This document shows, in pieces, positions 49,778 through 63,602 of a stretch of 64,000 nt of DNA. Under the pieces are notes generated by a model. The model saw only the letters and a program-made list of their open reading frames with translations, had not been told where the DNA came from and did not search any database. This stretch comes from Streptomyces sp. NBC_01481 (GTDB lineage Bacteria > Actinomycetota > Actinomycetes > Streptomycetales > Streptomycetaceae), in NCBI RefSeq assembly GCF_026339995.1, contig NZ_JAPEPT010000007.1:124001-188000 (forward strand), written 5' to 3'. Made by a program: the position numbers and the translations under genes. Numbering within the stretch: position 1 is the stretch's first letter; each line of letters begins with the position of its first letter.

Positions 49778-50335
49778 GTGATCGAAGAGACCCTCCTCGA
49801 GGCCGAGGAGAAGATGGAGAAGGCCGTCCTGGTCGCCAAGGATGACTTCGCCGCGATCCGCACCGGACGTGCGCACCCGGCGATGTTCAACAAGATCGTG
49901 GCGGACTACTACGGTGCGTTGACCCCGATCAACCAGCTGGCCTCGTTCTCGGTTCCCGAGGCGCGGATGGCCGTGGTGACCCCGTTCGACAAGAGCGCGC
50001 TGCGCAATATCGAGCAGGCCATCCGCGACTCCGACCTCGGCGTCAACCCGAGCAACGACGGCAACATCATCCGGGTGGTGTTCCCGGAGCTGACGCAGGA
50101 CCGCCGCAAGGAGTTCATCAAGGTCGCCAAGACCAAGGCCGAGGACTCCAAGATCTCGATCCGTTCCGTGCGCCGCAAGGCCAAGGAGACGATCGACAAG
50201 TTCATCAAGGACGGCGAGGTCGGCGAGGACGAGGGCCGCCGTGCGGAGAAGGAGCTCGACGACACCACCGCGAAGTACGTCACGCAGGTGGACGAGCTGC
50301 TCAAGCACAAGGAAGCCGAGCTGCTCGAGGTCTGA
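49778..50335 (+). CDS. frr: Ribosome recycling factor
   Basis: A 185-residue RRF, the exact usual length when translated from the GTG at 49778, which has AGGAG (49767-49771) at proper spacing. Recognisable segments are [35 protein letters not shown] and [14 protein letters not shown]. It splits post-termination ribosomes with EF-G. Stop overlaps the cdsA start (TGATG). Confidence 0.97.
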
Positions 50336-51444
50336 TGAACGACTCTTCCTGGGGGGCCCCGCCGAGAGCCGGTTTCTGGGGACCGCCCGACCAGGGGCCT
50401 GCCCCGGCGGGTCCCGCATACGATGAGCATGACGCACAGCAGACTCGGCCCATGCCCATCGTGCCGGACTTTCCCGACGCAGGTAGAGACGCCGAAGACC
50501 GTAACGACCGCGACCAGAACGACGACCGCGACCGGGGGGCCGCTCGGCTGAGCGGCCCTCTGTTCCGGGACGAGATTCCGCAGGAGCCCATGCCCACCCC
50601 GCCGCCGGCGTCCGAGCCGCCGCAGAAGAAGCGGGCCGGCCGTGATCTGCGGGCGGCCATAGGGGTCGGTGTCGGGCTCGGCGCTGTGATCGTGGCATCG
50701 CTGTTCATCGTCAAAGCCGTGTTCGTAGGCGTGATAGCGGTCGCGGTCGTCGTCGGGCTGTGGGAGCTCACCTCGCGTCTCGAGGAGCGCAAGCAGATCA
50801 AGGCGCCGCTGGTACCGCTCGCAGTGGGCGGCGCGGCGATGGTCGTGGCCGGTTATGTCCGCGGTGCGGAGGGTGCCTGGGTCGCGATGGCGCTCACGGC
50901 GCTCGCGGTCCTGGTCTGGCGGATGACGGAGCCGCCCGAGGGATATCTGAAGGACGTCACGGCGGGTGTCTTCGCCGCGTTCTACGTGCCGTTCCTGGCG
51001 ACGTTCGTCGCGATGATGCTCACCGCCGACGACGGACCGCAGCGGGTGCTCACCTTCCTGGTGCTGACCGTGGTCAGCGACACGGGTGCGTACGCCGTCG
51101 GCTGGCGCTTCGGCAAGCACAAGCTCGCGCCGCGCATCAGCCCCGGGAAGACCCGCGAGGGCCTGGTCGGCGCGGTGACGTTCGCGATGGCGGCGGGCGC
51201 GCTGCTGATGGAGTTCGTGATCGACGACGGCACTTGGTGGCAGGGCCTGTTGCTGGGCTTCGCGGTCGCGGCCACTGCGACGCTCGGTGACCTGGGCGAG
51301 TCGATGATCAAGCGGGACCTCGGCATCAAGGACATGGGCACGCTGCTGCCGGGACACGGCGGCATCATGGACCGGCTCGACTCCCTGCTGCCGACGGCTC
51401 CCGTGGTGTGGCTGCTGATGGTGATCTTCGTCGGATCCGGCTGA
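50335..51444 (+). CDS. cdsA: Phosphatidate cytidylyltransferase
   Basis: A 369-residue integral membrane enzyme that makes CDP-diacylglycerol for phospholipid synthesis. The first ~110 residues are a polar, P/D-rich cytoplasmic extension. About eight hydrophobic segments follow, and the signature SDTGAYAVG...KLAPRISPGKTREG leads to the end motif DLGIKDMGTLLPGHGGIMDRLDS. One-base overlap with frr. Last gene before the island. Confidence 0.96.
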   Translation: MNDSSWGAPPRAGFWGPPDQGPAPAGPAYDEHDAQQTRPMPIVPDFPDAGRDAEDRNDRDQNDDRDRGAARLSGPLFRDEIPQEPMPTPPPASEPPQKKRAGRDLRAAIGVGVGLGAVIVASLFIVKAVFVGVIAVAVVVGLWELTSRLEERKQIKAPLVPLAVGGAAMVVAGYVRGAEGAWVAMALTALAVLVWRMTEPPEGYLKDVTAGVFAAFYVPFLATFVAMMLTADDGPQRVLTFLVLTVVSDTGAYAVGWRFGKHKLAPRISPGKTREGLVGAVTFAMAAGALLMEFVIDDGTWWQGLLLGFAVAATATLGDLGESMIKRDLGIKDMGTLLPGHGGIMDRLDSLLPTAPVVWLLMVIFVGSG

Positions 51445-51544: not shown

Positions 51545-51586
51545 TCTGCGACACTGGTAACACCATGCCCAAGCCCGGAGAACTCA
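51545..51586 (+). repeat. Left attachment-type repeat (attL): truncated copy of the rlmN 5' end
   Basis: 42 bp from TCTGCGACACTGG to GGAGAACTCA, matching 62476-62517 at 40 positions; the only difference is AA versus GG at 51559-51560. It contains the rlmN ATG (51565) and codons for MPKPGEL. After it the sequence no longer matches rlmN, so an orphan start codon remains here. Confidence 0.9.
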
Positions 51587-51604
51587 TAGTCTCGCGGACA
51601 AGAA

Positions 51605-51640
51605 AGCCCTCTACCAGCGGTTTCCCGCCGGTAGAGGGCT
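51605..51640. terminator. Long hairpin just inside the left repeat
   Basis: AGCCCTCTACC (51605-51615) and GGTAGAGGGCT (51630-51640) form a perfect 11-bp arm; with inner pairs the stem reaches 16 pairs with one mismatch around TTTC. It could end transcripts entering from cdsA or act as an arm site of the integration region. Confidence 0.6.
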
Positions 51641-51654
51641 GCTTGCAGACATCG

Positions 51655-51672
51655 GGGCCGTCTGTGGGCCGT
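51655..51672 (+). repeat. Left copy of an 18-bp direct repeat near the island ends
   Basis: GGGCCGTCTGTGGGCCGT is identical to 62379-62396 and in the same direction. Left copy is 69 bp inside attL; right copy is 80 bp inside attR. Possible arm-type recombinase or excisionase sites. Confidence 0.5.
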
Positions 51673-51733
51673 GGGGCTACGGAAAACTGTCCGGAGGTAG
51701 CTCGGGTCCGCAACCTGGCGGTTACTCGACCAA

Positions 51734-51952
51734 TCAAACTTGGAAGACGCGCTCAGGTTCCACAGACTCGACGCCGTCCACGGCTCGCAGCTTCGGCAGG
51801 GAAATTTCAGGTGCGCTGCCCACGACAGTCCCGATCGCTGGCTGCTTGGACCTGATGATCAGGCCAGCCTTGCGCACCGACTCGAGAACCTCGTCGTATC
51901 GGTCGAGGTCGAGCGCGACGACGATATTGACTGTTCGTTCAACTTCGCTCAT
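51734..51952 (-). CDS. Small I9-like (subtilisin propeptide/inhibitor-like) protein
   Basis: A 72-residue protein. The ATG at 51952 has GGTGGAGC just upstream; a longer frame from 51994 lacks support. It reads as a compact beta-alpha-beta domain: VNIVVALDLDRYDEVLES, IGTVVGSAPEISLPKLRAVDGVESVEPERVFQV. The ending VESVEPERV is the typical close of an I9 propeptide domain and resembles the end of the neighbouring protease's own prodomain (ILHVEQERV). It lies 45 bp downstream of the protease gene on the same strand. Inference: an inhibitor or folding partner acting in trans on that protease. Confidence 0.7.
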   Translation of the reverse strand: MSEVERTVNIVVALDLDRYDEVLESVRKAGLIIRSKQPAIGTVVGSAPEISLPKLRAVDGVESVEPERVFQV

Positions 51953-51997
51953 TGCGCTCCACCTGTTTCCGTCGAACTTAATCAATCCTCTCACGCA

Positions 51998-53311
51998 CTA
52001 CGGAGCCTGCACCAAACCCGCTCCAACATCGACCACCTCGTCGTGGAGGTGGGATGCGCCCGTGATGAGGTAGTTCTTGATGTCTGCTGGCGTGGCATGG
52101 GGGTGCTTTTGCCATAGCAGTGCGGCCACGCCAGCCACATGCGGGGCTGCCATGCTGGTGCCTGAGAGCCGCCTGTGTCCTGATGGTGAGGATGAGAACA
52201 CGTCTACCCCGGGCGCCGCTAGGTTAACTTCACCACCGCCAGAATTGAGCCCCGCACAGGAGAACGGCGCGACCCTGCGATCTGGCCCGATGCCGGCCAC
52301 CGACAGCACGGAGGGGCAGTTTGCTGGGTGACCGACAGGCGCGCTGTGGTGTGGACGCGAACTATCGTTCCCGGCCGCAGCAACGAGTAGCTTTCCTCGC
52401 CGTGCCGCTACCTGAGCGGCTCTCTCGAAGAGCCAGGAGGGAGGCTGCCCTTGTGCCACCGCTGCACTGAAGGACATCGAGACAACCTTGACCTGAGACT
52501 GCGTGATGGCCCAATTGAGGCCGGTGAGGATCTGCCCTTCTTCCCCTCTACCCTGGTCGTTCAGGACCTTGCCGATGTAGAGGTTGGCCTCGCAGGCTAC
52601 GCCGTAGCGGGGCCTGCCCGGGCTGTGCTTCGGGCCACACGCTGTTCCAGCGCAGTGAGTCCCGTGACCGTTGCCATCATCCGCCGTTTCCCCCGGTACG
52701 AAGGTAACGCGATCGGCGATTCGTGTATCGAAGTCCTGGTGCGACGGTGCAAAACCGGTGTCGAGTACGGCAACCCCCACGCCGCTCCCTGTCAGCTCAG
52801 TCCTGTGGGCTAGGACGGCCTGGATGCCCCAGGTTGCTTCGGACTCCCCCCAATCGACATCGACGTGCTTGGTGCGGACCCCTTCGGCCACGCGATTGTC
52901 CGGGCAGTCTCCTCGTCCAGCTCTGTAACCTCTGTCGTACCCCCTGAGGTACTCATCAGCCGCAGTGCAGGCGTACAGCACTCTCTCTTGTTCGACATGG
53001 AGGATGGCGGAGTTAGCGGTCACGGCCCCCGCCAGCGCCGGGCGCTGGTCCAGATCCACCGAGACGATCGCGACGCCCAGGTCGTCGAGGACGATGCTTT
53101 GGCCTTCGGCGAGCGCTTGCGAAGCCGACGCGGCTTCCGCTCCGGAAACATGCTCTGGCTTCGAGATCCCAGCCTGTTTTTCCAGTGCTGCCACACCGCT
53201 AGTGAGGTTCTCACTGTCGAGGAGAACAAGGTAGCGGCCTGTGTATTCGCCCCCTGGGATCTTTGCGACGCCGGCGTCCGCCATCACTGAGGTGCCTCCC
53301 ATGTCGCTCAT
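51998..53311 (-). CDS. Subtilisin-like serine protease (S8), no signal peptide
   Basis: A 437-residue S8 peptidase. Residues about 25-112 look like a propeptide (I9-like). The catalytic domain begins near 155, with Asp184 in VAVLDTGF, His216 in GHGTHCAG, oxyanion Asn315 in AAAGND and Ser386 in SGTSMAAPH, so the triad is intact. No hydrophobic signal peptide precedes it from the ATG at 53311, which has AAAGGGC upstream; an earlier in-frame start would add only shadow sequence. It is probably intracellular. Paired with the I9-like gene downstream. Role unknown; self-controlled proteases occur in several anti-phage systems, which is only an analogy here. Confidence 0.85.
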   Translation of the reverse strand: MSDMGGTSVMADAGVAKIPGGEYTGRYLVLLDSENLTSGVAALEKQAGISKPEHVSGAEAASASQALAEGQSIVLDDLGVAIVSVDLDQRPALAGAVTANSAILHVEQERVLYACTAADEYLRGYDRGYRAGRGDCPDNRVAEGVRTKHVDVDWGESEATWGIQAVLAHRTELTGSGVGVAVLDTGFAPSHQDFDTRIADRVTFVPGETADDGNGHGTHCAGTACGPKHSPGRPRYGVACEANLYIGKVLNDQGRGEEGQILTGLNWAITQSQVKVVSMSFSAAVAQGQPPSWLFERAAQVAARRGKLLVAAAGNDSSRPHHSAPVGHPANCPSVLSVAGIGPDRRVAPFSCAGLNSGGGEVNLAAPGVDVFSSSPSGHRRLSGTSMAAPHVAGVAALLWQKHPHATPADIKNYLITGASHLHDEVVDVGAGLVQAP

Positions 53312-53432
53312 CGCGTTGCCCTTTCGCTCGTCTGACCCGGAGGGCGACCACCGGTCTGGTGGACCCAGTGCCGGTTCGAGCATCCGGTGAGGGCAGCTGG
53401 GAGCGCGCGCCATGTACCGCCGATCGGGGCAC

Positions 53433-53615
53433 GGCCCGTCGCCTGCGTAGCGCCTGATCGACGGCACGCCGGGTCCGCTCGCGACTCGTTGGCATCAGAT
53501 GTGTGTAGACCCTCAGCGTGAGTGCCGGGTCAGAGTGCCCCAGGTACTGGCAGACGGCTTTGATGCTCTCTCCGGCGTCCAGCAGAACGGACGCATAGAA
53601 GTGCCTCAGCGCGCC
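53433..53615 (-). pseudogene. C-terminal remnant of a tyrosine recombinase (integrase)
   Basis: About 60 codons matching only the last part of a phage-type integrase: GALRHFYASVLLDAG, QYLGHSDPALTLRVYTHLMP. The second catalytic Arg, the His of LGH and the nucleophile Tyr (in VYTHLM) can be seen. The N-terminal three quarters, with the first catalytic Arg, are missing, and no start codon belongs to it. The frame is joined upstream to unrelated sequence and overlaps the last codons of the gene at 53606-53926. Direct evidence that the island once integrated by this kind of enzyme. Confidence 0.85.
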
Positions 53616-53926
53616 ATGCGGGCATCGACCTGCTCCCCGCTCGGCACGCTGGTCCACCACGGATCCGTGATGACGGCGGCCGAGAGCCGGAGTAGCCGGC
53701 GCCGGAACTGTCGCTCCAGCGTTACCTGCTCGGGGGTGTAGCCGGGAGAGTCGGCGAAGGACACGGTCCGGGTCGCTGGCCCCATCGTCGACTTCTCTTC
53801 GTAGGTCCAGCCGGGGGTGGGGTCGACGGACCAGGGCAGGGACCGGCACAGCTGCTCGTACTGGGCGCGGACGCCGTGCAGCTGCACCGCCTGCAGCCGC
53901 GGGGGGAAGTGGTAGGCGGTGCTCAC
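53606..53926 (-). CDS. Small conserved protein of streptomycete mobile elements, function unknown
   Basis: A 106-residue protein with start GTG at 53926 (an upstream GTG at 53941 is possible). It begins STAYHFPPRLQAVQLHGVRA and contains ERQFRRRLLRLSAAVITDPWW near the end. This YHFP...LRRRLLRLS...HP(F/W)W pattern occurs in short hypothetical proteins of other streptomycete elements as far as I recall. Codon use is ordinary. The end overlaps the integrase remnant, and a deletion may have removed what once lay between them. Confidence 0.6.
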   Translation of the reverse strand: MSTAYHFPPRLQAVQLHGVRAQYEQLCRSLPWSVDPTPGWTYEEKSTMGPATRTVSFADSPGYTPEQVTLERQFRRRLLRLSAAVITDPWWTSVPSGEQVDARMAR

Positions 53927-53992
53927 CCCAGAAAGGTACACCCGTTCGAATCTGTCGTTCTGTATCCGCCACGCTGGGCCGTACAGCATTCT

Positions 53993-54724
53993 GTGCGGGT
54001 GATTGAAGCGCTGGTGGCCACCGCCACCGCCATGCCCGTGGCCGTCCTCAGCTGGTGGCTTACCAACAAGTCCCGCGACCAGGCCGACGCGAAAGCAGAG
54101 CGCGCGACATTGGAGGCGCAGGCCGACGCCTTGATCCTGGCCGTGGCGGATCTGAAGGCGACCGCCACCACCAACCACATCCTGTGGGAGGGACCGGTCG
54201 AGCAATGGCGGTCATTCCTGCTGGCCTGCCTTGCAGCGGCAGGCGGCTACTCCCGCGCCCGCCTGACCGGGCGCGGCTCGGATCGGCTGTGGGGAGCGGC
54301 GGGCCTCGCCGCGGCGGGCCGATCGCTGAGCCAGGACCGCCGCGACGCAAAGCTCGCCACGGCCGGCGTCACCGCATCCGCCCATCGGCTCGCGGCCGCG
54401 GCCGTGCCTCTGCTACGTCACCCAGACCGTGACCTGGCAACTGCCACCCGGCGCCTCGTCGAAGCCGCACACGACGTACGGAACCCCGCGCAAGTGGATG
54501 CCGCTGGCGAGGCGTTCGGTCAGGCGGTCAGTGCCGCCCTTTCGCCGCCTCCGTCTCGGTGGAGGAGGCGGTCCTCTTCTTCGGCTGCCGGGGCACAGAC
54601 TTCTCCCGGTCCAGATGCCCGTACACCGTCGACCGCGGCACCCCGAACAGGTCGGCGATCTGCTGGACCGTCTTCTCCCGCGCGTCGTACAGCTGCTGAG
54701 CCAGCGCCGCCTGATCGCGGGTGA
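53993..54724 (+). CDS. Hypothetical membrane-anchored helical protein, C-terminus probably altered
   Basis: From the GTG at 53993 (another at 53999) the product begins with one hydrophobic segment (about 3-24, ALVATATAMPVAVLSWWLT) and then a long alpha-helical A/R-rich region (KSRDQADAKAERATLEAQAD...). After about residue 185 (FGQAVSAAL) the sequence turns into P/S/R-rich text that is antisense to the recombinase remnant. The original C-terminus has probably been lost at the junction near 54540. No known family recognised. Confidence 0.5.
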   Translation: MRVIEALVATATAMPVAVLSWWLTNKSRDQADAKAERATLEAQADALILAVADLKATATTNHILWEGPVEQWRSFLLACLAAAGGYSRARLTGRGSDRLWGAAGLAAAGRSLSQDRRDAKLATAGVTASAHRLAAAAVPLLRHPDRDLATATRRLVEAAHDVRNPAQVDAAGEAFGQAVSAALSPPPSRWRRRSSSSAAGAQTSPGPDARTPSTAAPRTGRRSAGPSSPARRTAAEPAPPDRG

Positions 54725-54740
54725 GCTTGGGGCAGCTGCC
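54528..54740 (-). pseudogene. C-terminal HTH remnant of a serine recombinase (resolvase-like)
   Basis: About 70 codons. PKLTRDQAALAQQLYDAREK followed by TVQQIADLFGVPRSTVYGHL is the typical C-terminal helix-turn-helix of Hin/resolvase-type recombinases, then a basic tail to the stop at 54528. The catalytic N-terminal domain is absent; the frame upstream runs into antisense of the pentapeptide gene, which ends at 54749. A deletion therefore joined the two. An alternative is a fragment of another HTH protein with the same domain. Confidence 0.65.
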
Positions 54741-54748
54741 GCCGACGG

Positions 54749-56939
54749 CTACCGTTTGATGCGGCCGCGGACGGCGAGGCCGAGTAGTACAGGTTCGGTG
54801 AGGCGGGAGGCCATTTCCGTGTAGGTACCGGCGGTGGTGAGGTCCTGCCCGGAGGAGCGGAAGATGACCGAATTGACCACCGCGCGCAGGCTCTTCTCGA
54901 ACCGATCGGTCGATATCCGTTCGTGGTAGGCGTTGGTGGGGTTGACCGGGTCGGGGGTTTCGGTGGTGAGCCGGATGTCCTGACCCGTCACCTTCCCGGT
55001 CGCCTCTGCCTTTGGATCGTCGACGGGCAGACCCCAAAGCATCATCGCGAACAGCGTCCCGGTCATCGCCAGCAGCAACCACACCAAGGCGCGGGTGGCA
55101 CGCAGCCCGTATCCGGACAGGGCCCAATAGCCAGCCAGCAACCACCGCTCCGCCCGCGGTGTCTCCTCATCCGCGCGGCGCATCTCCATCTCGCCGTAGT
55201 AGAAGTCTGCTGCTCCCGGCTCGTTCTTCCCGTCCTCGAAGGCCTTCCGCAGTGACCGGTACAGCGCCGCCAGCGCGGCCGGGCCCACCGTGTCGGCGCC
55301 CTCGGGCGCTGGTGTCCAGCCGGGAAGGGCCGCTGGCTGCCCAGCACGCCAGTACTGCTCCTCGGCGAGCGTGCGCCGCTGGGTGAACCGCACGAGGCGC
55401 GCTCGGCGCCCGTAGAGGCCCTCCGGCACCTGTGCGAAGGACGTGCGTCCCTCCAGGCGCAGCTGGTCCAGGTGTACGGTCCCGGCGAACCGGCACTTGC
55501 TCATGTCGAGGTCGGTGAGGACCAGGTGGGCTGCGTCCACTCCCTGTAACGACAGCATTCGTACGGTCGCAGGCCGTTCTGACAGGACCCCTTCCTGCAG
55601 TACTTCACCCTGAGCCAGGGTGAAGGGGGCGGGCGTGGGCGGCGATGCTGAGCGGATACTCGAAGACCGTGTCGGTGAAGTCCACTTCGGCGTACCGCAG
55701 CCGTAGGCCAGCTGCTGAGGACCAGCGGGTGCGGCGGCAAACCACGTGCCGGGCGGCCGCCTCGATCGTGACCGGACCCCCGAACGATGCGGACGACAGA
55801 TCGAAAACGCCTGCGCATGTCAGAGGGCCCACCTGCGGTGCCCGCTCAAACACGGCCGAGCCGAACCGGGCGTCGCCGTTGAAGGTGGCCGAATCGAACC
55901 GGGCGCTGCTGTCGAACGAGGCTGAGGAGAACTCTGCAGCGCCATTGAACGTGGCCGATCCGAATCCGGCGGTGCCATTGAACGCGACCGACCCGAATCG
56001 GGCCCTGCGGGAAAAAGTGGCCGAGTCGAACCGGGCGCTGCAGGTAAAGGTGACCGACTCGAACCGGGCGTCGCGGGTGAACGTGGTCGAACTGAACCAG
56101 GCGTCTTGGGTGAAGGTGGCTGAGGCGAACCTGGCTTCGCCGCTGAATGTGGCTGAGCCGAACCGGGCGTCGCGGGTAAAGGTGGCCGAACTGAAACTGG
56201 AGTCGCGGGTGAACCTGGCCGACTCGAACCGGGCGTCGCGGGTGAACCTGGCCGAGCCGAACCAGGCGCCGCAGGTGAACGTGGTCGAGGTGAAGAGGGC
56301 GGTGTCGTTGAAGGTCGCTGACCCGAAGTGGGCGTCGCCGCTGAAGGTGGCCGACTCGAACCGGGCGCTGCGGGTAAAGGTGACCGAGCCGAAACGTGCT
56401 TCGCCGATGAATGTGGCTGAGTTGAATCCGGCGCTGCCATTGAACTTGGCTGAGTTGAATCCGGCGCTGCCAATGAAGGTCGCTGAGTCGAATCCGGCGG
56501 TGCTGGTGAAGGCGACCGAGCCGAAGAAGGCGGGGGCGTCGAAGGTGGCCGAGCCGAACCGGGCGTCGCCGCTGAAGGTGGCCGACTTGAACCAGGCGGT
56601 GCCCTTGAAGGTCGCTGAGTCGAACCGGGCGTCGCGGGTAAAGGTGGCCGACTCGAACCGGGCGTCGCCGATCGTTGGGCGCTGAGTGCCGGGATCTCGT
56701 ACTGCATCGAGCAGCTGGCCGAGGAGGCCCTCATCCAACTCTGTGCCGCGATGATCGAGGTCGCTGCCGGGAGCGAGAGTGGCGACGTAGGTCTCTCGGT
56801 CCTCGGTGGTGAGGTGGACCAGGCACGCGTTATACGGGTCCACGCGTCGGCCGCGGCAGCCGACCTGATCGCCGCCGAGAGCCGGGTCGGCTCCATCACC
56901 GCAGTGCGGCCATTCCGGCGGGGGAGCGGTTGAGGTCAT
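54749..56939 (-). pseudogene. Pentapeptide-type repeat membrane protein, split by a one-base frameshift
   Basis: Two adjoining reverse-strand frames (56939-55605 and 55558-54749) make one ~730-residue protein if one base is removed from the G-run at 55625-55629. The first part has a Cys/His-containing start (WPHCGDGADPALGG), then 25 units of an 11-residue repeat of the form ARFxSATFxxD, and a second fold (RCRRTRW-like, LRYAEVDFTDTVFEY). The second part continues the same fold (LVLTDLDMSKCRFAGTVHL) and ends with two membrane segments (ALVWLLLAMTGTLFAMML) and a helical tail. Intact relatives in streptomycetes are single proteins. Could also be a sequencing error. Confidence 0.8.
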
Positions 56940-56982
56940 GAACTCAGGGACAGCTGCAGACAGCGACTGGTTGCCCGCTTAG

Positions 56983-57005
56983 CCGAGAGAGAGAACCTCT
57001 CTCGG
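56983..57005. terminator. Hairpin downstream of the STAND ATPase gene
   Basis: CCGAGAGAG-AGAAC-CTCTCTCGG, a perfect 9-bp stem, 20 bp after the reverse-strand stop at 57025 and before the pentapeptide gene. Likely terminator. Confidence 0.65.
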
Positions 57006-57024
57006 CAGACTGCCCTGCCGTCCA

Positions 57025-59373
57025 TCAATCGATCGAATCCTCCACATCCGATGCACCGGCAGCCGCTTCGGCCTCCAGAGTGGCCAGATATTCGGCGGCT
57101 GACTGCGCTTCGGCCGCGCCGATGCACTGGTAGATATCGATGGCTGCACGCAGTTCAGGCGCAGCGGCCGTGTGATCGCCGATACGAGCCAGACAGCGGG
57201 CCGCTCCTTCGAGCGCCCGCGCCTCGTCCAGGGGGCTGCGGATCTGACGTGCTAGTTCCAGTGCCTTCCGGTACGGGGTGAGGGCCGCTTGTGGCCCGGT
57301 GGAATCGGCCAAAAGCGCCCCTACGTTGTTCAGCACCTCGGCCTCTCCTTGCGGATCGCCAACCTCCTGGAACAGGGCCAAGGCCTGCTCCAGGAGCCGG
57401 ACCGCCTCCGCATACTCGCCGACCGCCCGCCGCGCACGGCCCAGCTCGTTGAGGGCGTTGGCCTGCCCGAGCCGGTCGCCGAGGTTCTCATACAGGGCCA
57501 AGGCCTGCTTCTGAAGCCGGATCGCCTGCACGTACTCGCCGGTCAGGTACCGCACACGACCCAGGGCGTTGAGGGCGTTGGCCTGCCCGTGCTGGTGGCC
57601 GAGGTTCTCATACAGGGCCAAGGCCCGCTCCTGAAGCCGGACCGCCTGCGCATACTCGCCGACCGCCTGCCGCACATGGCCCAGCTCGTGGAGGGTGTTG
57701 GCCTGCCCGGGCCGGTGGCCGAGGTTCTCATACAGGGCCAAGGCCTGCTCCAGGAGCCGGACCGCCTGCGCATACTCGCTGAACGCCCGCCGCGCACGGC
57801 CCAGCTCGTTGAGGGCGTTGGCCTGCCCGAGCCGGTGGCCGAGGTTCTCATACAGGGCCAAGGCCTGCTTCTGAAGCCGAACCGCCTGCGCGTACGCGCA
57901 GGTCAGGTACCGCACGGTGCCCAGCTCGTGGAGGGCGTTGGCTTCGCCGGAGGGGTCGGTGGCGTGGCGGGCGGCGGTGACAGCGCGTTGGTGGAGGGTA
58001 GCGGCCTGGAGCCAGGGGCCGTCCTGAAGGAGGAAGGCGGCCATGGCAGCGGTCAGGTGGACCACGCGGGGTGCCTGGCCTTGGGTGGCGGTGTCGAGGT
58101 AGGCGAGGAGGTTGGCGCGTTCAGTGCGCATCCAGGCCAGGGCGCCCGCCCGGTCGGGCAGGTCCGGGGCGGCTGCGGGCGGGGCGGTGGTCGGGGTGTC
58201 GGGGCGGGGGGCGCGGTTCAGGTGGTGGTCGGCCCTCAGGTGGTGGTCGGCCCTCAGGGCGGTGTGCTGGTAGTAGTCCAGGAGCCGTTCGGTGGCCTGG
58301 GCACGCTCGTCGGGCGGGTCGTTGCAGGTGAGGGTTTGGGCGTAGGCGCGCAGGAGGTCGTGGGGCTGGTAGCGGCCGGGGGTGGTTTCGTCGAGGAGGT
58401 GGTCGGTGTAGAGGGCCTCCAGGCGGCGGCGGGTGTCGGTGAGGGATGTGTTGTCGAGGGCAGCCGCGGCGTACGCGTCGAGGTCGGTGCCGGGGTGCAG
58501 GACGATGCGGCGGAACAGGCGCTGCTGGCCCTCGGGCAGGTCCTGGTAGGAGAGAGTGAAGGCGGTGTACACGGCGCGGTTTTCGCCGTCGTCGAGTTCG
58601 CCCAGGCGGTCCTGGGCGTCGGCGAACTCGGCGGCGAACCGGGCAATGGACCACTTCTCCTCGTCCTTGTGGCGCAGGCGGCCGGCGAGCAGGACGATCG
58701 CGAGCGGCAGATACCCGCACAGCCGAACCACCTCGGCGACCGCGTCCTGTTCGCTGCCGGTGGGGGCGCGGTGGCAGCGGCTGGTGAACAGGTCGGCGGC
58801 TTCGGCGGGGGTGAGCGGGTCGAGGGACAGGGGGTCGGCGCCGTCGAGGGCGATGAGGCGGCGGCGGCTGGTGACCAGGGTCAGGCAGCCGGGACTGCCG
58901 GGCAGGAGAGGCTGGATCTGAGCGTGGCCGGCGGCATCGTCCAGCACCAGCAGCACGCGTTTGCCGGTGAGCCGGTCGCGCCACAGGTGCGAGCGGCCTT
59001 CGAGGGTCGGGGGCAGGTTGCGCGGGTCGATGCCCAGGCCGGTCAGCAGCACCGCCAGCACGTCGACGGGTTTGGCGGAGGTCTGGCCGGGGGTGTGGGC
59101 GTGCAGTTCGTAGAAGAACTGCCCGTCCGGAAACCGCTCGGCGAGCCGATGTGCGGCGCGGGTGACCAGGGCAGTCTTGCCCACCCCCGGCATCCCGTCC
59201 ACGGTATACACGTTCACCACCCGGCCCGGGGCCGCCGCGGCCAGCAGGTACTTCAGCTCGCGCCCGCGCCCAATGAAGCCCGCGATGTCCTGGGGCAGAC
59301 CATGGGTGACCACCGGCCGGGCGGGCGGCGGCGCATCGTGCACCGTCGTCTTGTACATGTCGCCGGCCGGCAT
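57025..59373 (-). CDS. STAND NTPase: NB-ARC domain plus TPR array
   Basis: A 782-residue signalling ATPase. Walker A is GMPGVGKT (60-67), Walker B LLVLDD (141-146), the NB-ARC sensor LVTSR is at 166-170, and the GLPL-like motif is GYLPLAI (about 214). A winged-helix/ARC region follows to about 400. The C-terminal half is TPRs: five nearly identical 40-residue units (120 bp each), such as QAVRLLEQALALYENLGHR, then diverged ones. Start ATG at 59373 with GGGGGAA upstream. There is no N-terminal effector domain, so a partner may supply output. Upstream gene 59445-59870 is in the same operon. Relatives occur in streptomycete regulators and in some bacterial NLR-like defence proteins; function here unknown. 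Confidence 0.88.
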   Translation of the reverse strand: MPAGDMYKTTVHDAPPPARPVVTHGLPQDIAGFIGRGRELKYLLAAAAPGRVVNVYTVDGMPGVGKTALVTRAAHRLAERFPDGQFFYELHAHTPGQTSAKPVDVLAVLLTGLGIDPRNLPPTLEGRSHLWRDRLTGKRVLLVLDDAAGHAQIQPLLPGSPGCLTLVTSRRRLIALDGADPLSLDPLTPAEAADLFTSRCHRAPTGSEQDAVAEVVRLCGYLPLAIVLLAGRLRHKDEEKWSIARFAAEFADAQDRLGELDDGENRAVYTAFTLSYQDLPEGQQRLFRRIVLHPGTDLDAYAAAALDNTSLTDTRRRLEALYTDHLLDETTPGRYQPHDLLRAYAQTLTCNDPPDERAQATERLLDYYQHTALRADHHLRADHHLNRAPRPDTPTTAPPAAAPDLPDRAGALAWMRTERANLLAYLDTATQGQAPRVVHLTAAMAAFLLQDGPWLQAATLHQRAVTAARHATDPSGEANALHELGTVRYLTCAYAQAVRLQKQALALYENLGHRLGQANALNELGRARRAFSEYAQAVRLLEQALALYENLGHRPGQANTLHELGHVRQAVGEYAQAVRLQERALALYENLGHQHGQANALNALGRVRYLTGEYVQAIRLQKQALALYENLGDRLGQANALNELGRARRAVGEYAEAVRLLEQALALFQEVGDPQGEAEVLNNVGALLADSTGPQAALTPYRKALELARQIRSPLDEARALEGAARCLARIGDHTAAAPELRAAIDIYQCIGAAEAQSAAEYLATLEAEAAAGASDVEDSID

Positions 59374-59444
59374 GTTGAGTTCCCCCGGCCCGAGGACCGT
59401 GCCCTGCTGCTCGACGCGCGTGGCGGGCGGCTGGTCGGGCGGGG

Positions 59445-59870
59445 TCAGACTTTTGGGGCCGGCGGCTCCCTGTACACGTCCCGCCCGGCGACGATGCTCG
59501 TGCCGCCGTGCACGGTGGTGTTCTGGAAGACGGAGTACACCCGCTCACGCTCGCCCGGGTTCAGGGCCGGCCCGAGCTGGTCATCCAGCAGTCGGCGCAG
59601 CCCATCGGCCGCCGTCGGGTCCTGCTGCAGCAGTGCCTGCAACTGCAGCCGCCACATGCCCTCCAGGGCCTGCTCGGTGTCGGGGTCGTGGTCGTGGCGG
59701 GCCTGGAGGACCTGAGTCCGCAGTGCCTCCAGCTCGCCGCCCACCTGCTCGGCCCGCTCAGGATGGATCCGCCGCCACAGGGCGACCACGCCGTCCCGGG
59801 CCTGCTGCCAGGCATCCGTGGCCATCGCCGCCACCAGCGCCGACCCAGCCGCCATCGTCACAGCATCCAT
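59445..59870 (-). CDS. Small partner protein of the STAND ATPase, function unknown
   Basis: A 141-residue protein from the ATG at 59870. A hydrophobic/Ala-rich N-terminus (MDAVTMAAGSALVAAMATD) could be a weak membrane segment. An alpha-helical region (HPERAEQVGGELEALRTQVL) follows, ending in NTTVHGGTSIVAGRDVYRE, a pattern seen in small proteins encoded before NB-ARC genes in other streptomycetes. It lies 71 bp upstream of the STAND gene on the same strand, so both are probably one operon. The longer frame from 59999 has no support. Confidence 0.7.
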   Translation of the reverse strand: MDAVTMAAGSALVAAMATDAWQQARDGVVALWRRIHPERAEQVGGELEALRTQVLQARHDHDPDTEQALEGMWRLQLQALLQQDPTAADGLRRLLDDQLGPALNPGERERVYSVFQNTTVHGGTSIVAGRDVYREPPAPKV

Positions 59871-60279
59871 CCCGCACCCCCACCAGCGTCGCCTGCCGTG
59901 CAGTTCCCAGTGTGACGCCCACCCGGCCAGCGGAGCCATAGCCCGAAGGGCATCGAGCACGGCCCATCTCCTCCGTGATGCAGGGGCTGCTCGCCGCATT
60001 TCCAGGGTGATCGAAAATGCAAAAATCCACTCCGCTAAGTGACTCCATATCTACGGAGAGCCATTTATGGGGGTCTTTTCGGGGAGCTATCTCACATGCT
60101 GGAACGTCAAGTGACGGAAAACGCACCCCGTGCTTACCTCTTCGGCGACGGCGAAATGCTCTGTCCTCAAGCTCCACTTGAGGCCCAACAGAGCCCTGCC
60201 ACCACCAGGTTGCCGTCGCCATGGAGTCCGGCACGGATCGCGAAGGCTGCGAACGCGCCCGGGGGGCGGCAACGCTAAA
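59871..60279. other. Upstream region of the STAND operon, about 410 bp, no gene seen
   Basis: This stretch is clearly less GC-rich than its surroundings (for example around 60000-60075). Short frames on both strands, including a 79-codon one from 60039, have no ribosome site and no codon bias. It should hold the promoter of the reverse-strand operon. Confidence 0.4.
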
Positions 60280-60310
60280 AGCGGCCTCCCGCACCACACG
60301 GGAGGCCGCT
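60280..60310. terminator. Strong bidirectional hairpin
   Basis: AGCGGCCTCCCG-CACCACA-CGGGAGGCCGCT, a perfect 12-bp stem, 46 bp before the small gene at 60357. It would insulate that gene from upstream transcription. Confidence 0.75.
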
Positions 60311-60356
60311 ATGGAGTCCAGCGGATCCCCTTCTCAGGGCTGAGGAAAGGGAAAAC

Positions 60357-60659
60357 GTGAACGCGCAGAACCATACGGGCGGACAGTCGCGTCCGTCGAA
60401 TGCTCAGATGCCGCCGATCCCCCCGCAGGGGCAGCGTCTTTCGGAGCGTCCGACTGACACGACGCCCGTGGAGCGGCCGAAGTTGCGGCCGAGCTGGAAC
60501 GTCGAGGCGCCCTCCGCGGAGACCGCAGCCATCGCGACAATCGGCGTAGCCGAGGCCGCCAACCTGGCGGGGTACGTCGACGGATCGATCGCTGGCGGCG
60601 CCATGGTGTTGGGCGTGCTGGCCTTCCTCGTGAAGAAGTGCATCAAGCGCAATCCCTGA
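60357..60659 (+). CDS. Small membrane protein, function unknown
   Basis: A 100-residue protein. The first ~50 residues are polar and P/Q/S-rich (PPIPPQGQRLSERPTD). The C-terminal part is AEAANLAGYVDGSIAGGAMV then LGVLAFLVKKCIKRNP: one membrane segment with a basic end. The GTG at 60357 has GGAAAGGGAAAA upstream, a good ribosome site. It is framed by terminators on both sides, so it is a separate transcription unit. A small single-helix protein in an island could be a toxin or a membrane partner; nothing in the sequence decides this. Confidence 0.65.
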   Translation: MNAQNHTGGQSRPSNAQMPPIPPQGQRLSERPTDTTPVERPKLRPSWNVEAPSAETAAIATIGVAEAANLAGYVDGSIAGGAMVLGVLAFLVKKCIKRNP

Positions 60660-60669
60660 CGACGCACGC

Positions 60670-60702
60670 AGAGGGGCCCCGGCAACCAGCCGGGGCCCCT
60701 CT
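60670..60702 (+). terminator. Terminator after the small membrane protein gene
   Basis: AGAGGGGCCCCGG / CCGGGGCCCCTCT, a perfect 13-bp stem with loop CAACCAG, 11 bp after the stop at 60659. Confidence 0.8.
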
Positions 60703-60758
60703 GGCATGACACTTCAGAGACGGGTCGTAGGCGGGTGCCGCGCCCTGGCAGCCCAAGA

Positions 60759-61334
60759 TCAGTGGTAGCCCTCCTGGTACTCCCGTGCCCTTTCCTCCAT
60801 CACCTCCAAGTAGTTCGCTTCGACCTCACGGGCCTGGCTTAGCCCCCTGCTCTCCTCGGGAAGAGGTTCGTCGCGCGCACAGGCTCCCAGACAGTCCAGA
60901 GCGTGATCGCACAGCGCCGCGAAGAGCCCATCCGAGCCTCCAAGTCCTGGCTCGGACACGTCCGGCCAGGAGAGGAGCTCAGCAATCTTGTCGAGTCGCA
61001 TGCGGACCGCCTCGTCCCGGATTCTGAGCACGGTCGGTTCAACCTTAAGCACCTGCTGCTGAAGCGCCTTCTGCCAGACCTGGTTGCGTTGTTGCGCTCC
61101 CTCCCCATGGTCGGAGGGCCTACCGCGGATGTGCTGCTTGATCTGGAAGAACGCTTGGATTGCCGCGTCCACTGCCGTGTCGACACGTTGAGCGATCACC
61201 AGTTGCCTGGCTGCCTTTGCCTGTTGCCGCTGGGCAATGATCGATGCCCAGATCGAGAGTCCGCCCCCGACCACCGTGCCGCACAGCCCGAAGACGGCTC
61301 CCACCAACACCCCTGCATCCATACAGGTCATCAT
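60759..61334 (-). CDS. Hypothetical membrane-anchored protein
   Basis: A 191-residue protein with one N-terminal membrane segment (about 5-31, LVGAVFGLCGTVVGGGLSIW). A cytoplasmic helical domain rich in Q and A (AQRQQAKAARQLVIAQRVDT) follows, and a Cys-containing region near 150. The ATG at 61334 is followed by further ATGs at 61331 and 61322; no ribosome site is clear. Codon bias supports coding. No family recognised. The arrangement (membrane helix plus coiled helices) resembles phage- and element-encoded proteins of unknown function. Confidence 0.65.
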   Translation of the reverse strand: MMTCMDAGVLVGAVFGLCGTVVGGGLSIWASIIAQRQQAKAARQLVIAQRVDTAVDAAIQAFFQIKQHIRGRPSDHGEGAQQRNQVWQKALQQQVLKVEPTVLRIRDEAVRMRLDKIAELLSWPDVSEPGLGGSDGLFAALCDHALDCLGACARDEPLPEESRGLSQAREVEANYLEVMEERAREYQEGYH

Positions 61335-61449
61335 GTCGATGGGGCCAGCCCCAGGCGGCCGATCCCGTCAGCTCCTCCTCAATGGCCATGGTCCGGCTTC
61401 GTTTCAACAGCCGCACTTGCCGCAGTACTCCATGAGTTCAGGCCCTCCG

Positions 61450-61469
61450 GCCGTAGGGCGCCCTACGGC
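61450..61469. repeat. Perfect 20-bp palindrome
   Basis: GCCGTAGGGCGCCCTACGGC reads the same on both strands. In a non-coding part of the island 116 bp upstream of the reverse-strand gene starting at 61334; possible operator or recombination site. Confidence 0.6.
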
Positions 61470-61539
61470 GGGTTGCATTGACCTCGGCCAATAGCCACGT
61501 CCCCCGCGTCCCGATGGCACCGCCACGCCGTGACAGGGC

Positions 61540-61574
61540 TCTGGGAGAAATCTGGGAGAAGATCTTCTCCCAGA
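61540..61574. repeat. 24-bp perfect palindrome with an extra direct half-site
   Basis: TCTGGGAGAA at 61551-61560 is followed by GATC and its exact complement, making a 24-bp palindrome (61551-61574). A third copy, TCTGGGAGAA, sits in direct orientation at 61540-61549. This 3-half-site layout suits a dimeric DNA-binding protein or a hairpin. Confidence 0.65.
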
Positions 61575-61892
61575 CGCTGCCCAGGCACCGTGTCATACCA
61601 ACCAGTACCGAAGGCCTGACATGCGACAACAACCGGACCAAGTGATGCGGCGCGGGCCCGGACCTTATTCGGGACGAAGAGGTCGTGAATTCTCGGGCTA
61701 AGTTTCCGCGGCCTCCTCAGAACCTGTGTCAGTGCCGTACTGACCTGACATCGCGACCGCCTGAGCGCGACCAGCGACTCTCTCCGGCAGCGCTGCGATC
61801 TGTGCGCGGATCTTCACCGGCGTATGTGCCGGTAGCGCAGTGCACGACGCTTGGTGCCATGCCCACGTCTTGAGGCTGTGACGGTTCTCGGT

Positions 61893-62233
61893 TCACAGCA
61901 CACGGAGGTCTGTGTCGGGTCGGCAGTACGGGCACGCCATGATGCCCTCTTCCGTGATTGCGCGGAGTGCCTGCTCGCGGGTCAGTCGTTTCGTGGGGTT
62001 GCCGGCCATGCGGCCGTCGATCGTGTGCACCGCGTCCGGGCTGGGTTTGCCACCTGCCCGGAGCATCGACAGCTTCCACGCAGGCTCGCGCGGGGGCAGA
62101 GTGCGTGGCGCACGCGCAGCGGCCGCCTCCTGGCGCGCTAGTTCCGCGATGGATTCGTCGGTGCGGAGCAGCTGCCACGCGAGCCACTGGCGGACGCTGC
62201 GCAGACGCTCCAGGCGGGCACTTGTTCGGACAC
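61893..62233 (-). pseudogene. DUF6233-like small protein, frameshifted
   Basis: Reading in the frame ending at the stop 61893-61895 gives [20 protein letters not shown], then a Pro-rich middle, and the ending LTREQALRAITEEG...ACPYCRPDTDLRVL, which closely follows the small streptomycete DUF6233 family (CPxCRPDTxLxxL at the end). That frame has no start codon; a stop (TAG) lies 10 codons before LERL. The expected N-terminus (VSEQVPA from GTG at 62233) is in another frame, so one base has been gained or lost near 62213. The family identification is from memory. Confidence 0.6.
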
Positions 62234-62378
62234 GTGTTCGAGTCTAGGTCGCGACAGTGCTGGTCCGACAGGGAGGGCCATGGCGGGGGAGAGGTTCGCC
62301 ATGCCGTCGTCGGCGGACCCAGGGGGTTCGCTCGCACTCCCCGTTGGCGTTCTGGCCAGCCGGAACGTGCTCCGGGCT

Positions 62379-62396
62379 GGGCCGTCTGTGGGCCGT
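62379..62396 (+). repeat. Right copy of the 18-bp direct repeat
   Basis: GGGCCGTCTGTGGGCCGT, identical to 51655-51672. Itself made of two GGCCGT blocks. Confidence 0.5.
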
Positions 62397-62475
62397 CCGA
62401 GGGTGCCCAGCGGTGACCAACAACGACCGTCAATGCCCACCCCGGACGTCAACGGCCGCAGGTCACGAGATTCGG

Positions 62476-62517
62476 TCTGCGACACTGGTGGCACCATGCC
62501 CAAGCCCGGAGAACTCA
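62476..62517 (+). repeat. Right attachment-type repeat (attR) over the rlmN start
   Basis: The 42-bp partner of attL at 51545-51586, with GG in place of AA at 62490-62491. Includes 20 bp before the rlmN ATG and its first seven codons. Confidence 0.9.
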
Positions 62518-63602
62518 CTTTCGTCGCGCCCCGCGGAGCCAAGAAGCCCCCGCGGCATCTCGCCGACCTCACGCCCGCCGAGCGCAAGGAAGCCGTCGCC
62601 GCGATCGGCGAGAAGCCGTTTCGTGCCAAGCAGCTCTCACAGCACTACTTCGCGCGGTACGCCCACGACCCCGCCCAGTGGACCGACATCCCCGCGTCCG
62701 CGCGCGAGAAGCTCGCCGCCGAGCTGCTGCCGGATCTGATGTCCGTCGTACGGCACATCTCGTGCGACGAAGACACCACCCGCAAGACCCTGTGGCGGCT
62801 TCACGACGGGACGCTGGTCGAGTCCGTGCTCATGCGCTACCCGGACCGGGTGACCATGTGCATCTCGTCGCAGGCCGGCTGCGGAATGAACTGCCCCTTC
62901 TGCGCCACCGGGCAGGCGGGACTCGACCGCAATCTGTCGACCGCCGAGATCGTGCACCAGATCGTCGACGGAATGCGCGCGCTGCGTGACGGCGAGGTGC
63001 CCGGAGGCCCGGCGCGGCTGTCCAACATCGTCTTCATGGGCATGGGCGAGCCGCTCGCCAACTACAAGCGGGTCGTCGGCTCCATCCGCCGTCTCACCGA
63101 CCCCGAGCCGGACGGTCTCGGTCTCTCGCAGCGCGGGATCACCGTCTCCACCGTCGGTCTGGTGCCCGCGATGCTGCGCTTCGCCGACGAGGGCTTCAAG
63201 TGCCGCCTCGCCGTCTCGCTGCACGCGCCGGACGACGAGCTGCGCGACACCCTGGTCCCGGTCAACACGCGCTGGAATGTCCGCGAGGTCCTGGACGCGG
63301 CATGGGAGTACGCGGAGAAGTCCGGCCGCCGTATCTCCATCGAGTACGCGCTGATCAGGGACATCAATGACCAGGCGTGGCGGGGCGATCTGCTGGGCCG
63401 CCTGCTCAAGGGCAAGCGCGTCCACGTGAATCTGATCCCGCTCAACCCGACGCCGGGCTCGAAGTGGACGGCATCGCGCCCCGAGGACGAGAAGGCCTTC
63501 GTGGAGGCGATCGCGGCCCACGGCGTGCCCGTGACCGTACGGGACACCCGTGGCCAGGAGATCGACGGAGCGTGCGGACAGCTCGCGGCGTCCGAGCGGT
63601 AG
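62496..63602 (+). CDS. rlmN: Dual-specificity RNA methyltransferase RlmN
   Basis: A 368-residue radical-SAM enzyme that methylates C2 of A2503 in 23S rRNA and A37 in some tRNAs. The [4Fe-4S] cluster cysteines are C129, C133 and C136 in [12 protein letters not shown]; the GGEP-type motif is [10 protein letters not shown], and the conserved C-terminal cysteine is in GACGQL. The ATG at 62496 is the start shared with attL. The gene is complete, but everything upstream of the 42-bp core, including the promoter, now comes from the island. Confidence 0.97.

What the first reader, a model, noticed from the sequence alone, without database searches (positions are those of the whole stretch)
51734..53311. 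Intracellular subtilisin-like protease with a separate I9-like partner
An intact S8 protease (D184, H216, S386) without signal peptide has its own prodomain-like region, and the next gene encodes a 72-residue protein whose end (VESVEPERV) resembles that prodomain's end. A protease plus a trans-acting inhibitor in a mobile island suggests a controlled cytoplasmic protease, as in toxin/immunity or phage-defence modules.
Basis: partly seen in the sequence, partly recalled or inferred. Interest (0 to 1): 0.65.

Follow-up and report, generated by a model that had tools for sequence, protein, structure and literature searches.

The report
Cytoplasmic protease with separate inhibitor-like partner
Two neighbouring bacterial genes, one for a protein-cutting enzyme that appears to stay inside the cell and one for a tiny protein shaped like that kind of enzyme's built-in safety cap, travel together across very distant bacteria, which suggests an undescribed enzyme-and-brake unit whose purpose is still unknown.

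Summary
An intact S8 protease (437 aa, no signal peptide seen) has its own N-terminal prodomain and is followed by a 72-aa protein. That protein models confidently as the subtilisin-propeptide (I9) fold (pLDDT 93; best PDB match Tk-subtilisin propeptide). The two genes form a conserved unit. Among 392 Streptomyces genomes the same 36 carry both, always adjacent. In a scan of named genomes (best 80 loci kept), 22 of 24 close protease relatives, from six phyla, carry the small gene directly downstream, against 0 of 56 other S8 loci. On a quick tree the pairing needs two changes. A 4-nt stop/start overlap is possible in 41 of 69 pairs.

Best reading: a cytoplasmic subtilase held in check by a dedicated, trans-encoded propeptide-like inhibitor. 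Inhibition is inferred, not shown.

This copy lies in a ~10.9-kb element flanked by 42-bp repeats at the rlmN start, so 'mobile island' is supported. 'Toxin/immunity or phage defence' is not established: no recurrent neighbours, and one intact protease without a partner. Ten full-text searches of open papers showed no such bacterial pair.

The parts
51998..53311 (-). S8 (subtilisin-like) protease, 437 aa, no signal peptide seen
   Evidence: Translation; Pfam PF00082 3e-50; no hydrophobic N-terminus
52967..53248 (-). cis prodomain of the protease (about residues 22-115), I9-like in the model
   Evidence: Model; VIA-align aligns residues 25-438 together to unprocessed pro-subtilisin E 3whi_A (Z 45.4, 336 residues, rmsd 2.5) and 25-439 to pro-Tk-subtilisin 2e1p (Z 43.7); alignment A11
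52001..52843 (-). catalytic domain (about residues 157-437); D184 (52760-52762), H216 (52664-52666), N315 (52367-52369), S386 (52154-52156)
51734..51952 (-). 72-aa propeptide-like (I9-fold) partner protein, ATG start, same frame as the protease, 45 nt after its stop
   Evidence: AlphaFold2 model pLDDT 93.0; Foldseek best hit Tk-subtilisin propeptide 2z58_B
51957..51964 (-). Shine-Dalgarno-like AGGTGGAG before the small gene
   Evidence: Sequence read directly
51545..51586 (.). left copy of a 42-bp direct repeat (att-like), copy of the rlmN start region
   Evidence: 40 of 42 identical to 62476-62517; own-genome BLAST E = 2.9e-11
62476..62517 (.). right copy of the direct repeat, spanning the start codon of rlmN (ATG 62496)
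53493..53612 (-). remnant of a tyrosine integrase (40 residues of the C-terminal end)
   Evidence: PF00589 2.4e-5, profile positions 131-169 of 172, 24.6 bits against a Pfam cut-off of 27.1

Best explanation
The two genes are one linked unit: a cytoplasmic subtilase made as a zymogen with its own propeptide-like prodomain, and a second, separately made propeptide-like protein that binds the same protease in trans. SHOWN by computation: gene linkage, the propeptide fold of the partner, the canonical placing of the cis prodomain in the model, conserved catalytic residues, no recognisable export signal. INFERRED: after autoprocessing in the disordered linker (residues 119-148) the cis prodomain leaves; the partner then sits on the same face of the enzyme with its C-terminal tail in the substrate cleft and keeps the mature protease off until the partner is removed, diluted or degraded. 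The tail either ends near the place equivalent to the propeptide's cleavage site (this window: ...FQV) or runs on as a Pro-rich stretch (LPPPDSPIQ in many), so it offers a poor scissile bond, as expected of a lasting inhibitor rather than a throw-away propeptide. The cellular job of the protease is open; the rivals below on cellular role do not all exclude this mechanism.
For: Same 36 of 392 Streptomyces genomes hold the protease (E <= 1e-75) and the strong small match (E <= 1e-20), adjacent in all 36. In the genome-contig scan (best 80 of 497 relatives kept) 22 of 24 close relatives have the small gene downstream against 0 of 56 other S8 loci. Of 14 plasmid records matched, six were fetched and all six have it. 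Tree: 2 changes of the pair label, shuffled mean 31. A start codon overlapping the stop by 4 nt in 41 of 69 pairs. Propeptide fold: pLDDT 93, strand-helix-strand-strand-helix-strand; best PDB hit Tk-subtilisin propeptide 2z58_B (E 8e-4, TM 0.69/0.75), and 14 of the top 20 are subtilisin propeptides or pro-subtilisins. Four of the five best PDB sequence-profile hits are Tk-subtilisin propeptides, though weak (E 0.06-0.14). In 22 of 34 further loci the frame hit by the small-protein profile also holds an S8 match, C-terminal to the hit in 21 and overlapping it in one; in 98 S8 proteins all 8 hits, weak ones, lie N-terminal of the core. Tail: at least 2 Pro in the last 12 residues in 62 of 70, Pro 26% in the tail against 5% in the body. 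Distances of the two proteins correlate (r = 0.64, best of 1000 permutations 0.22, n = 40; shared descent alone could give this).
Against: In the read-through model it is the cis prodomain, not the partner, that takes the canonical site. Pfam Inhibitor_I9 does not match the partner. One intact protease (L174, Saccharopolyspora) has no partner in its locus or genome, and Chryseobacterium L197 has only a positionally equivalent 65-aa ORF whose kinship is not shown. Eight of 70 partners lack the Pro-rich tail, this window's among them. This window's pair lacks the 4-nt overlap.
Confidence: 0.6

Rival explanations
1. Trans-acting folding helper: the partner is mainly a foldase (with passing inhibition) for the protease, as ORF2 is for the Aeromonas sobria serine protease.
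For: ORF2 is encoded just downstream of its subtilase, is needed for maturation, its C-terminal region contacts the catalytic site and it inhibits (IC50 84 nM) (PMC5638518, passages read). Same gene order here, with a possible 4-nt overlap in 41 of 69 pairs.
Against: That protease has no propeptide of its own (PMC9549277, passages), whereas this one has a cis prodomain that docks canonically in the model. One intact protease has no detectable partner.
Confidence: 0.2
2. Toxin-antitoxin or anti-phage module: the protease harms the cell (or an infected cell) when the labile partner is lost.
For: S8 proteases are reported toxins of island and chromosomal modules (SgiAT of SGI1, PMC5006074, and a mycoplasma module, PMC8562856; passages). 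This unit is patchy (36 of 392 Streptomyces), lies in scattered places (28 upstream context groups among 40 loci), on plasmids and in a repeat-flanked element here. A locus with a decayed protease still keeps an intact small gene (L038). Ten PADLOC models hit one flanking protein each, among them MADS components, AriA and ZorB.
Against: The S8 toxins in those papers pair with an AAA-ATPase, not an inhibitor-like protein. No neighbour family recurs. Protease-first gene order. Intact protease without partner (L174). NCBIfam's anti-phage S8 model scores 36 bits against a cut-off of 900.
Confidence: 0.2
3. Regulated housekeeping or stress proteolysis, the counterpart of Bacillus intracellular subtilisin and its protein inhibitor, spread by gene transfer.
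For: No export signal, no recurrent dedicated neighbours; 15 of the 36 Streptomyces loci lie on contigs of over 7 Mb, so on chromosomes. A Bacillus intracellular subtilisin has a separate proteinaceous inhibitor (PMC3901451, seen as search listing and abstract start only).
Against: Not found in 356 of 392 Streptomyces genomes and scattered in position, unlike a housekeeping gene. The Bacillus inhibitor has an Ig-like fold.
Confidence: 0.3
4. The small protein is a substrate or peptide precursor: the protease frees its conserved C-terminal tail as an active peptide.
For: Conserved tail across phyla (for example PPPDSPIQ; last residue Q in 47 of 70).
Against: The body is a well-folded propeptide-like domain, the tail is absent in this window's copy and in others, and no family of neighbours recurs.
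Confidence: 0.05

Closest known systems
Stand-alone subtilisin-propeptide mimics of eukaryotes (Plasmodium SUB1-ProM, Toxoplasma MIC5, Pleurotus POIA1, yeast peptidase B inhibitor, an Arabidopsis inhibitor)
   Same: Small separate protein with the propeptide fold; SUB1-ProM is encoded beside subtilase genes and potently inhibits SUB1 (PMC6993865, passages). POIA1 (1itp) matches the small model at TM 0.56.
   Different: Those are eukaryotic; this is a bacterial pair without export signal, in six phyla, with frequent gene overlap. Inhibition not shown here.
Aeromonas sobria serine protease and its external chaperone ORF2
   Same: Subtilase followed by a gene for a protein whose C-terminal end works at the active site (PMC5638518, passages).
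   Different: That enzyme is secreted and has no propeptide; this one has no export signal and has its own prodomain. Kinship of ORF2 with the partner was not tested.
IetAS / SgiAT / mycoplasma AAA-ATPase-subtilase toxin-antitoxin modules
   Same: S8 protease in a two-gene unit, on plasmids and islands among other places (PMC5006074, PMC8562856, passages).
   Different: Partner is an AAA-ATPase there, a 72-aa propeptide-like protein here; the IetS-type models score low.
Tk-subtilisin propeptide
   Same: Closest solved fold and, weakly, closest PDB sequence profile to the small protein.
   Different: It is cut from its own enzyme (recalled); the partner here is a separate gene and the protease keeps a prodomain as well.
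Bacillus intracellular subtilisin and its inhibitor IPI
   Same: Intracellular subtilase with a separate protein inhibitor (PMC3901451, listing and abstract start).
   Different: IPI is Ig-like; [quoted passage not shown]
Type VII secretion mycosins
   Same: Best NCBIfam match of the protease (133 bits).
   Different: Far below that model's cut-off of 278.75 bits; no signal peptide seen here.

Membership tests
Peptidase S8 (subtilase) | S8 domain with Asp-His-Ser triad | tested here: met
   PF00082 3e-50; triad invariant in the 21 rows of A7; motifs present in 71 of 72 family members, the one lacking them being the remnant L038
Secreted subtilisin | N-terminal signal peptide | tested here: not met
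   No hydrophobic segment in the 49 of 70 members that could be tested by a Kyte-Doolittle window; no SignalP run
[quoted passage not shown]
   Model; Foldseek (NapD and other proteins of similar topology also score)
I9 propeptide-like inhibitors | Match to Pfam Inhibitor_I9 (PF05922) | tested here: not met
   No match for P0002 at E <= 10 nor for 11 members at E <= 1; in the own genome PF05922 matches five other places, not this gene. Known stand-alone I9 proteins also lack significant sequence similarity (PMC6993865)
I9 propeptide-like inhibitors | Inhibits a subtilase | not testable with these tools
   Needs an enzyme assay
IetAS-type toxin-antitoxin system | AAA-ATPase antitoxin gene next to the S8 gene | tested here: not met
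   The next gene is the small protein in the 70 pairs; no recurrent ATPase family among 123 neighbours
IetAS-type toxin-antitoxin system | S8 protein scores over the IteS/IetS model | tested here: not met
   36.1 bits against a cut-off of 900; PADLOC IetS models at most 38.1 bits, no cut-off given
Aeromonas protease / ORF2 type | Protease lacks its own propeptide | tested here: not met
   cis prodomain present and docked as in pro-subtilisin E
Toxin-antitoxin module (any type) | Protease toxic alone, neutralised by partner | not testable with these tools
   Needs expression tests

The most novel reading that the evidence does not exclude
A broadly spread new class of bacterial conflict or cell-fate module in which a cytoplasmic subtilase is the effector and a separately encoded copy of the propeptide fold is its antidote: loss or degradation of the antidote (plasmid loss, phage attack, stress) would unleash proteolysis inside the cell.
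Probability: 0.2. Interest if true: 0.85.

Novelty: new variant of a known kind. Interest (0 to 1): 0.6.

Why it matters
Stand-alone propeptide mimics that guard subtilases are described from a fungus, yeast, a plant and parasites (PMC6993865). This would be a bacterial counterpart: gene-linked, kept together in six phyla, and not recognised by Pfam in the members tested. It gives a simple, testable system for how cells keep an active subtilase in the cytoplasm, a family of natural candidate subtilase inhibitors, and a candidate for a proteolytic toxin-antitoxin or defence unit that differs from the known ATPase-controlled ones.

Tried and rejected
Pfam, NCBIfam, PADLOC and PHROGs do not know the small protein. 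Rfam and tRNA scans of the window were empty. Phage records: in 28 records with a match none covers 80% of the protease. Of 80 viral-contig loci one, L272, has the pair; its flanking genes look bacterial by eye, so I do not call it viral. The 56 control S8 loci were tested with the small-protein profile only, within 2.5 kb; a very divergent partner there could be missed. In the tree L197 was labelled as paired although kinship of its small ORF was later not shown; counting it as unpaired could add one change. One control, L212, was dropped from the tree for length. A search of plasmids with the L197 small ORF found nothing. The phylum search gave one further strong match, G906, whose neighbours I did not inspect. 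Four of the 12 weak-match genomes were not fetched, nor eight of the 14 plasmid records. No conserved gene was run as a control for the context grouping. The alignment score of the 42-bp repeat region (75) is not far above the best of 190 random pairs of stretches (69, mean 24); the BLAST E-value is the better measure.

Limits of the fold work: the read-through model joins protease and partner by reading the TAG stop as Gln; this is a modelling device, not a claim that read-through happens. It carries no interface score, so the partner's place on the enzyme is unknown. VIA-align rows cover model residues 25-440 in the main (one row, 3afg_A, runs to 522), so the partner was tested by its own model.

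Full report
OBSERVATION. The protease (51998-53311) has an S8 domain (PF00082, 3e-50, residues 175-427) with D184, H216, N315 and S386 invariant in a 21-row alignment. No export signal is seen: in the 49 of 70 family members that could be tested, the most hydrophobic 14-residue stretch before the prodomain averages at most 0.72 on the Kyte-Doolittle scale, this protein being the maximum. The next gene (51734-51952) starts at ATG 51952, 45 nt after the TAG stop, behind AGGTGGAG. Protease and partner do not align by BLASTP. Profile against profile they do, over 43 columns at the prodomain end (P 1.6e-5, probability 79%).

THE PARTNER IS A PROPEPTIDE-LIKE PROTEIN. An AlphaFold2 model from 32 family sequences has pLDDT 93.0, with strands and helices in the order E7-14 H16-28 E32-37 E42-48 H49-57 E61-66. 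Foldseek's best PDB match is the Tk-subtilisin propeptide (2z58_B, E 8e-4, TM 0.69/0.75). 14 of the top 20 rows are subtilisin propeptides or pro-subtilisins, mixed with NapD and other proteins of similar topology; the stand-alone inhibitor POIA1 (1itp) is at TM 0.56. Sequence-profile search of the PDB has Tk-subtilisin propeptides in four of the first five rows, but weakly (E 0.06-0.14). Pfam does not recognise the family. Run on other genomes, the partner's profile gives weak hits inside larger frames. Of 34 such loci looked at (two of them, L144 and L145, being genuine pairs), 22 hold an S8 match in the same frame, some of it weak, C-terminal to the hit in 21 and overlapping it in one. Among 98 S8 proteins all 8 hits, weak ones, lie N-terminal of the core. 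So the partner is kin to S8 prodomains in general. Nothing suggests a recent copy of its neighbour's own prodomain.

THE PROTEASE KEEPS ITS OWN PRODOMAIN. A model of the window's protease and partner, joined by reading the TAG as Gln, has pLDDT 87.1 and pTM 0.79. VIA-align aligns residues 25-438 together to unprocessed pro-subtilisin E (3whi_A, Z 45.4, 336 residues, rmsd 2.5) and 25-439 to pro-Tk-subtilisin (2e1p, Z 43.7). The cis prodomain therefore takes the canonical site in the model. The linker 119-148 is disordered, a likely place for autoprocessing (inference). The partner could use the same site only once the cis prodomain has left.

CO-OCCURRENCE. In 100 genomes around the window's own, protease matches below 1e-90 and partner matches below 1e-10 fall in the same genomes: the own one, G033, G049, G054 and G055. 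In 392 genomes of the genus the protease profile matches 36 at E <= 1e-75. The partner profile matches 48 at E <= 1e-3, of which 36 at E <= 1e-20. The two sets of 36 are identical, and each partner lies directly after its protease. The other 12 genomes have only weak matches. I fetched nine weak-match loci (L100-L108: eight of these genomes and a second match in G412); eight of the nine also hold a weak S8 match in the same frame. At least five genomes outside the genus, in four family groups, have the pair or its remnant among 394 genomes of the class.

ACROSS PHYLA. They split cleanly. 24 match the protease profile at over 350 bits, and 22 of these have a partner-profile match directly downstream. 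56 score under 250 bits, and none has one within 2.5 kb. The 22 come from Actinomycetota, Chloroflexota, Cyanobacteriota, Bacteroidota, Pseudomonadota and Acidobacteriota; several are metagenome-assembled. Of the two exceptions, Chryseobacterium L197 has a 65-aa ORF in the right place whose kinship is not shown. Saccharopolyspora L174 has an intact protease and no partner detected in its locus or genome. Of 14 plasmid records matched by the protease I fetched six, and all six carry the small gene. On a quick tree of 97 catalytic domains the label 'paired' needs 2 changes (shuffled mean 31), best read as one gain and one loss; phyla are mixed within the clade. Counting L197 as unpaired could add one.

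EXPRESSION LINK AND TAIL. In 41 of 69 pairs a possible start codon of the small gene overlaps the protease stop by 4 nt, mostly GTGA, which suggests translational coupling; this window's copy does not. In 62 of 70 partners the last 12 residues hold at least two prolines; Pro is 26% there and 5% in the body. In the PDB-profile alignment the last aligned residue of the family core meets the second-last residue of the Tk-subtilisin propeptide chain, whose end is the cleavage site (recalled). So the partner either stops about there (this window) or goes on as a Pro-rich tail. I infer that it offers a poor scissile bond. Protein distances of the two partners correlate (r 0.64, permutation maximum 0.22 of 1000, n 40), which shared descent would also give; among the 163 comparisons with catalytic identity under 50% r is 0.25.

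SETTING IN THE WINDOW. The pair lies between cdsA (50335-51444) and rlmN (62496-63602). A 42-bp direct repeat (40 of 42) stands at 51545-51586 and at 62476-62517, the second spanning the rlmN start. The BLAST of the rlmN region finds this copy in the own genome at E 2.9e-11, and finds similar extra copies about 12.9 kb and 4.4 kb from rlmN in two other Streptomyces genomes (G005, G007). In 6 of 11 relatives' loci cdsA stands within 1.5 kb of rlmN; in the other 5 it does not. So about 10.9 kb was most likely inserted at the rlmN start, a site that seems to be used repeatedly. The only integrase match found in it is a 40-residue remnant, so it may no longer move by itself. Elsewhere the pair is scattered: 40 Streptomyces loci fall into 28 upstream and 26 downstream context groups (contig ends shorten some flanks, the test is DNA-level, and no conserved gene was run as control).

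WHAT IT DOES. Linkage, fold and the tail point to a dedicated brake on a cytoplasmic protease. That the partner inhibits is inference from the propeptide fold and from known stand-alone propeptide mimics (PMC6993865, passages). A folding-helper role is the nearest mechanistic rival, as for the Aeromonas protease and ORF2 (PMC5638518, passages), weakened by the cis prodomain here. A toxin-antitoxin role has good precedent in S8 toxins (PMC5006074, PMC8562856, passages), but those use an AAA-ATPase partner. A flank survey of 123 proteins from 27 loci found no Pfam family in more than 3 and no PADLOC model in more than 1; ten PADLOC models had one hit each, among them three MADS components, AriA and ZorB, untraced and without a background rate. 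A locus with a decayed protease and intact partner (L038) fits a toxin-antitoxin view; L174 speaks against it.

NOVELTY. Ten full-text searches of open papers showed no report of a bacterial subtilase with a gene-linked stand-alone propeptide-like partner. Subscription papers are mostly not held, so this is not proof. I rate it a new variant of a known kind: the parts and their logic are known, the bacterial unit and its spread appear not to be.

Noticed in passing
window 51545-62517; G005:C1:5569639-5582526; G007:C1:7882759-7887182: The 5' end of rlmN looks like a repeated insertion site for elements in Streptomyces: a 40-42-bp copy of the rlmN start is found again several kb away in three genomes.
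   Followed up: partly
window 57025-59373: NB-ARC ATPase with many TPR repeats (STAND-like) inside the same element as the pair; possible signalling or defence protein, not tested.
   Followed up: no
window 55605-56939: Pentapeptide-repeat protein with six repeat stretches (PF13576) in the same element.
   Followed up: no
L038 9427-10067: In another actinomycete family (G092) only the C-terminal end of the protease is left, but the small gene is intact.
   Followed up: partly
L254 10001-11312: On a Streptomyces avidinii plasmid the protease is annotated as two overlapping frames, a likely frameshift in its N-terminal part, with the small gene still present.
   Followed up: no
L100-L103, L105, L106: Frames of about 1,500 residues in Streptomyces in which the partner's profile matches a segment just before a weakly recognised, split S8 match: probably large S8 proteins with an I9-like prodomain.
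   Followed up: no
L197 9245-9442: Chryseobacterium relative has a 65-aa ORF in the partner's place; the profile comparison does not support kinship, though its pattern looks alike by eye.
   Followed up: partly
L352 (G906:C130:7469-7705): One more strong partner match (E 5.2e-21) outside the class, found in the phylum search; neighbours not inspected.
   Followed up: no
PADLOC model PDLC03014: A PADLOC model named only 'subtilase' matches the protease at 98 bits; which system it belongs to I could not find out (paper search empty).
   Followed up: partly
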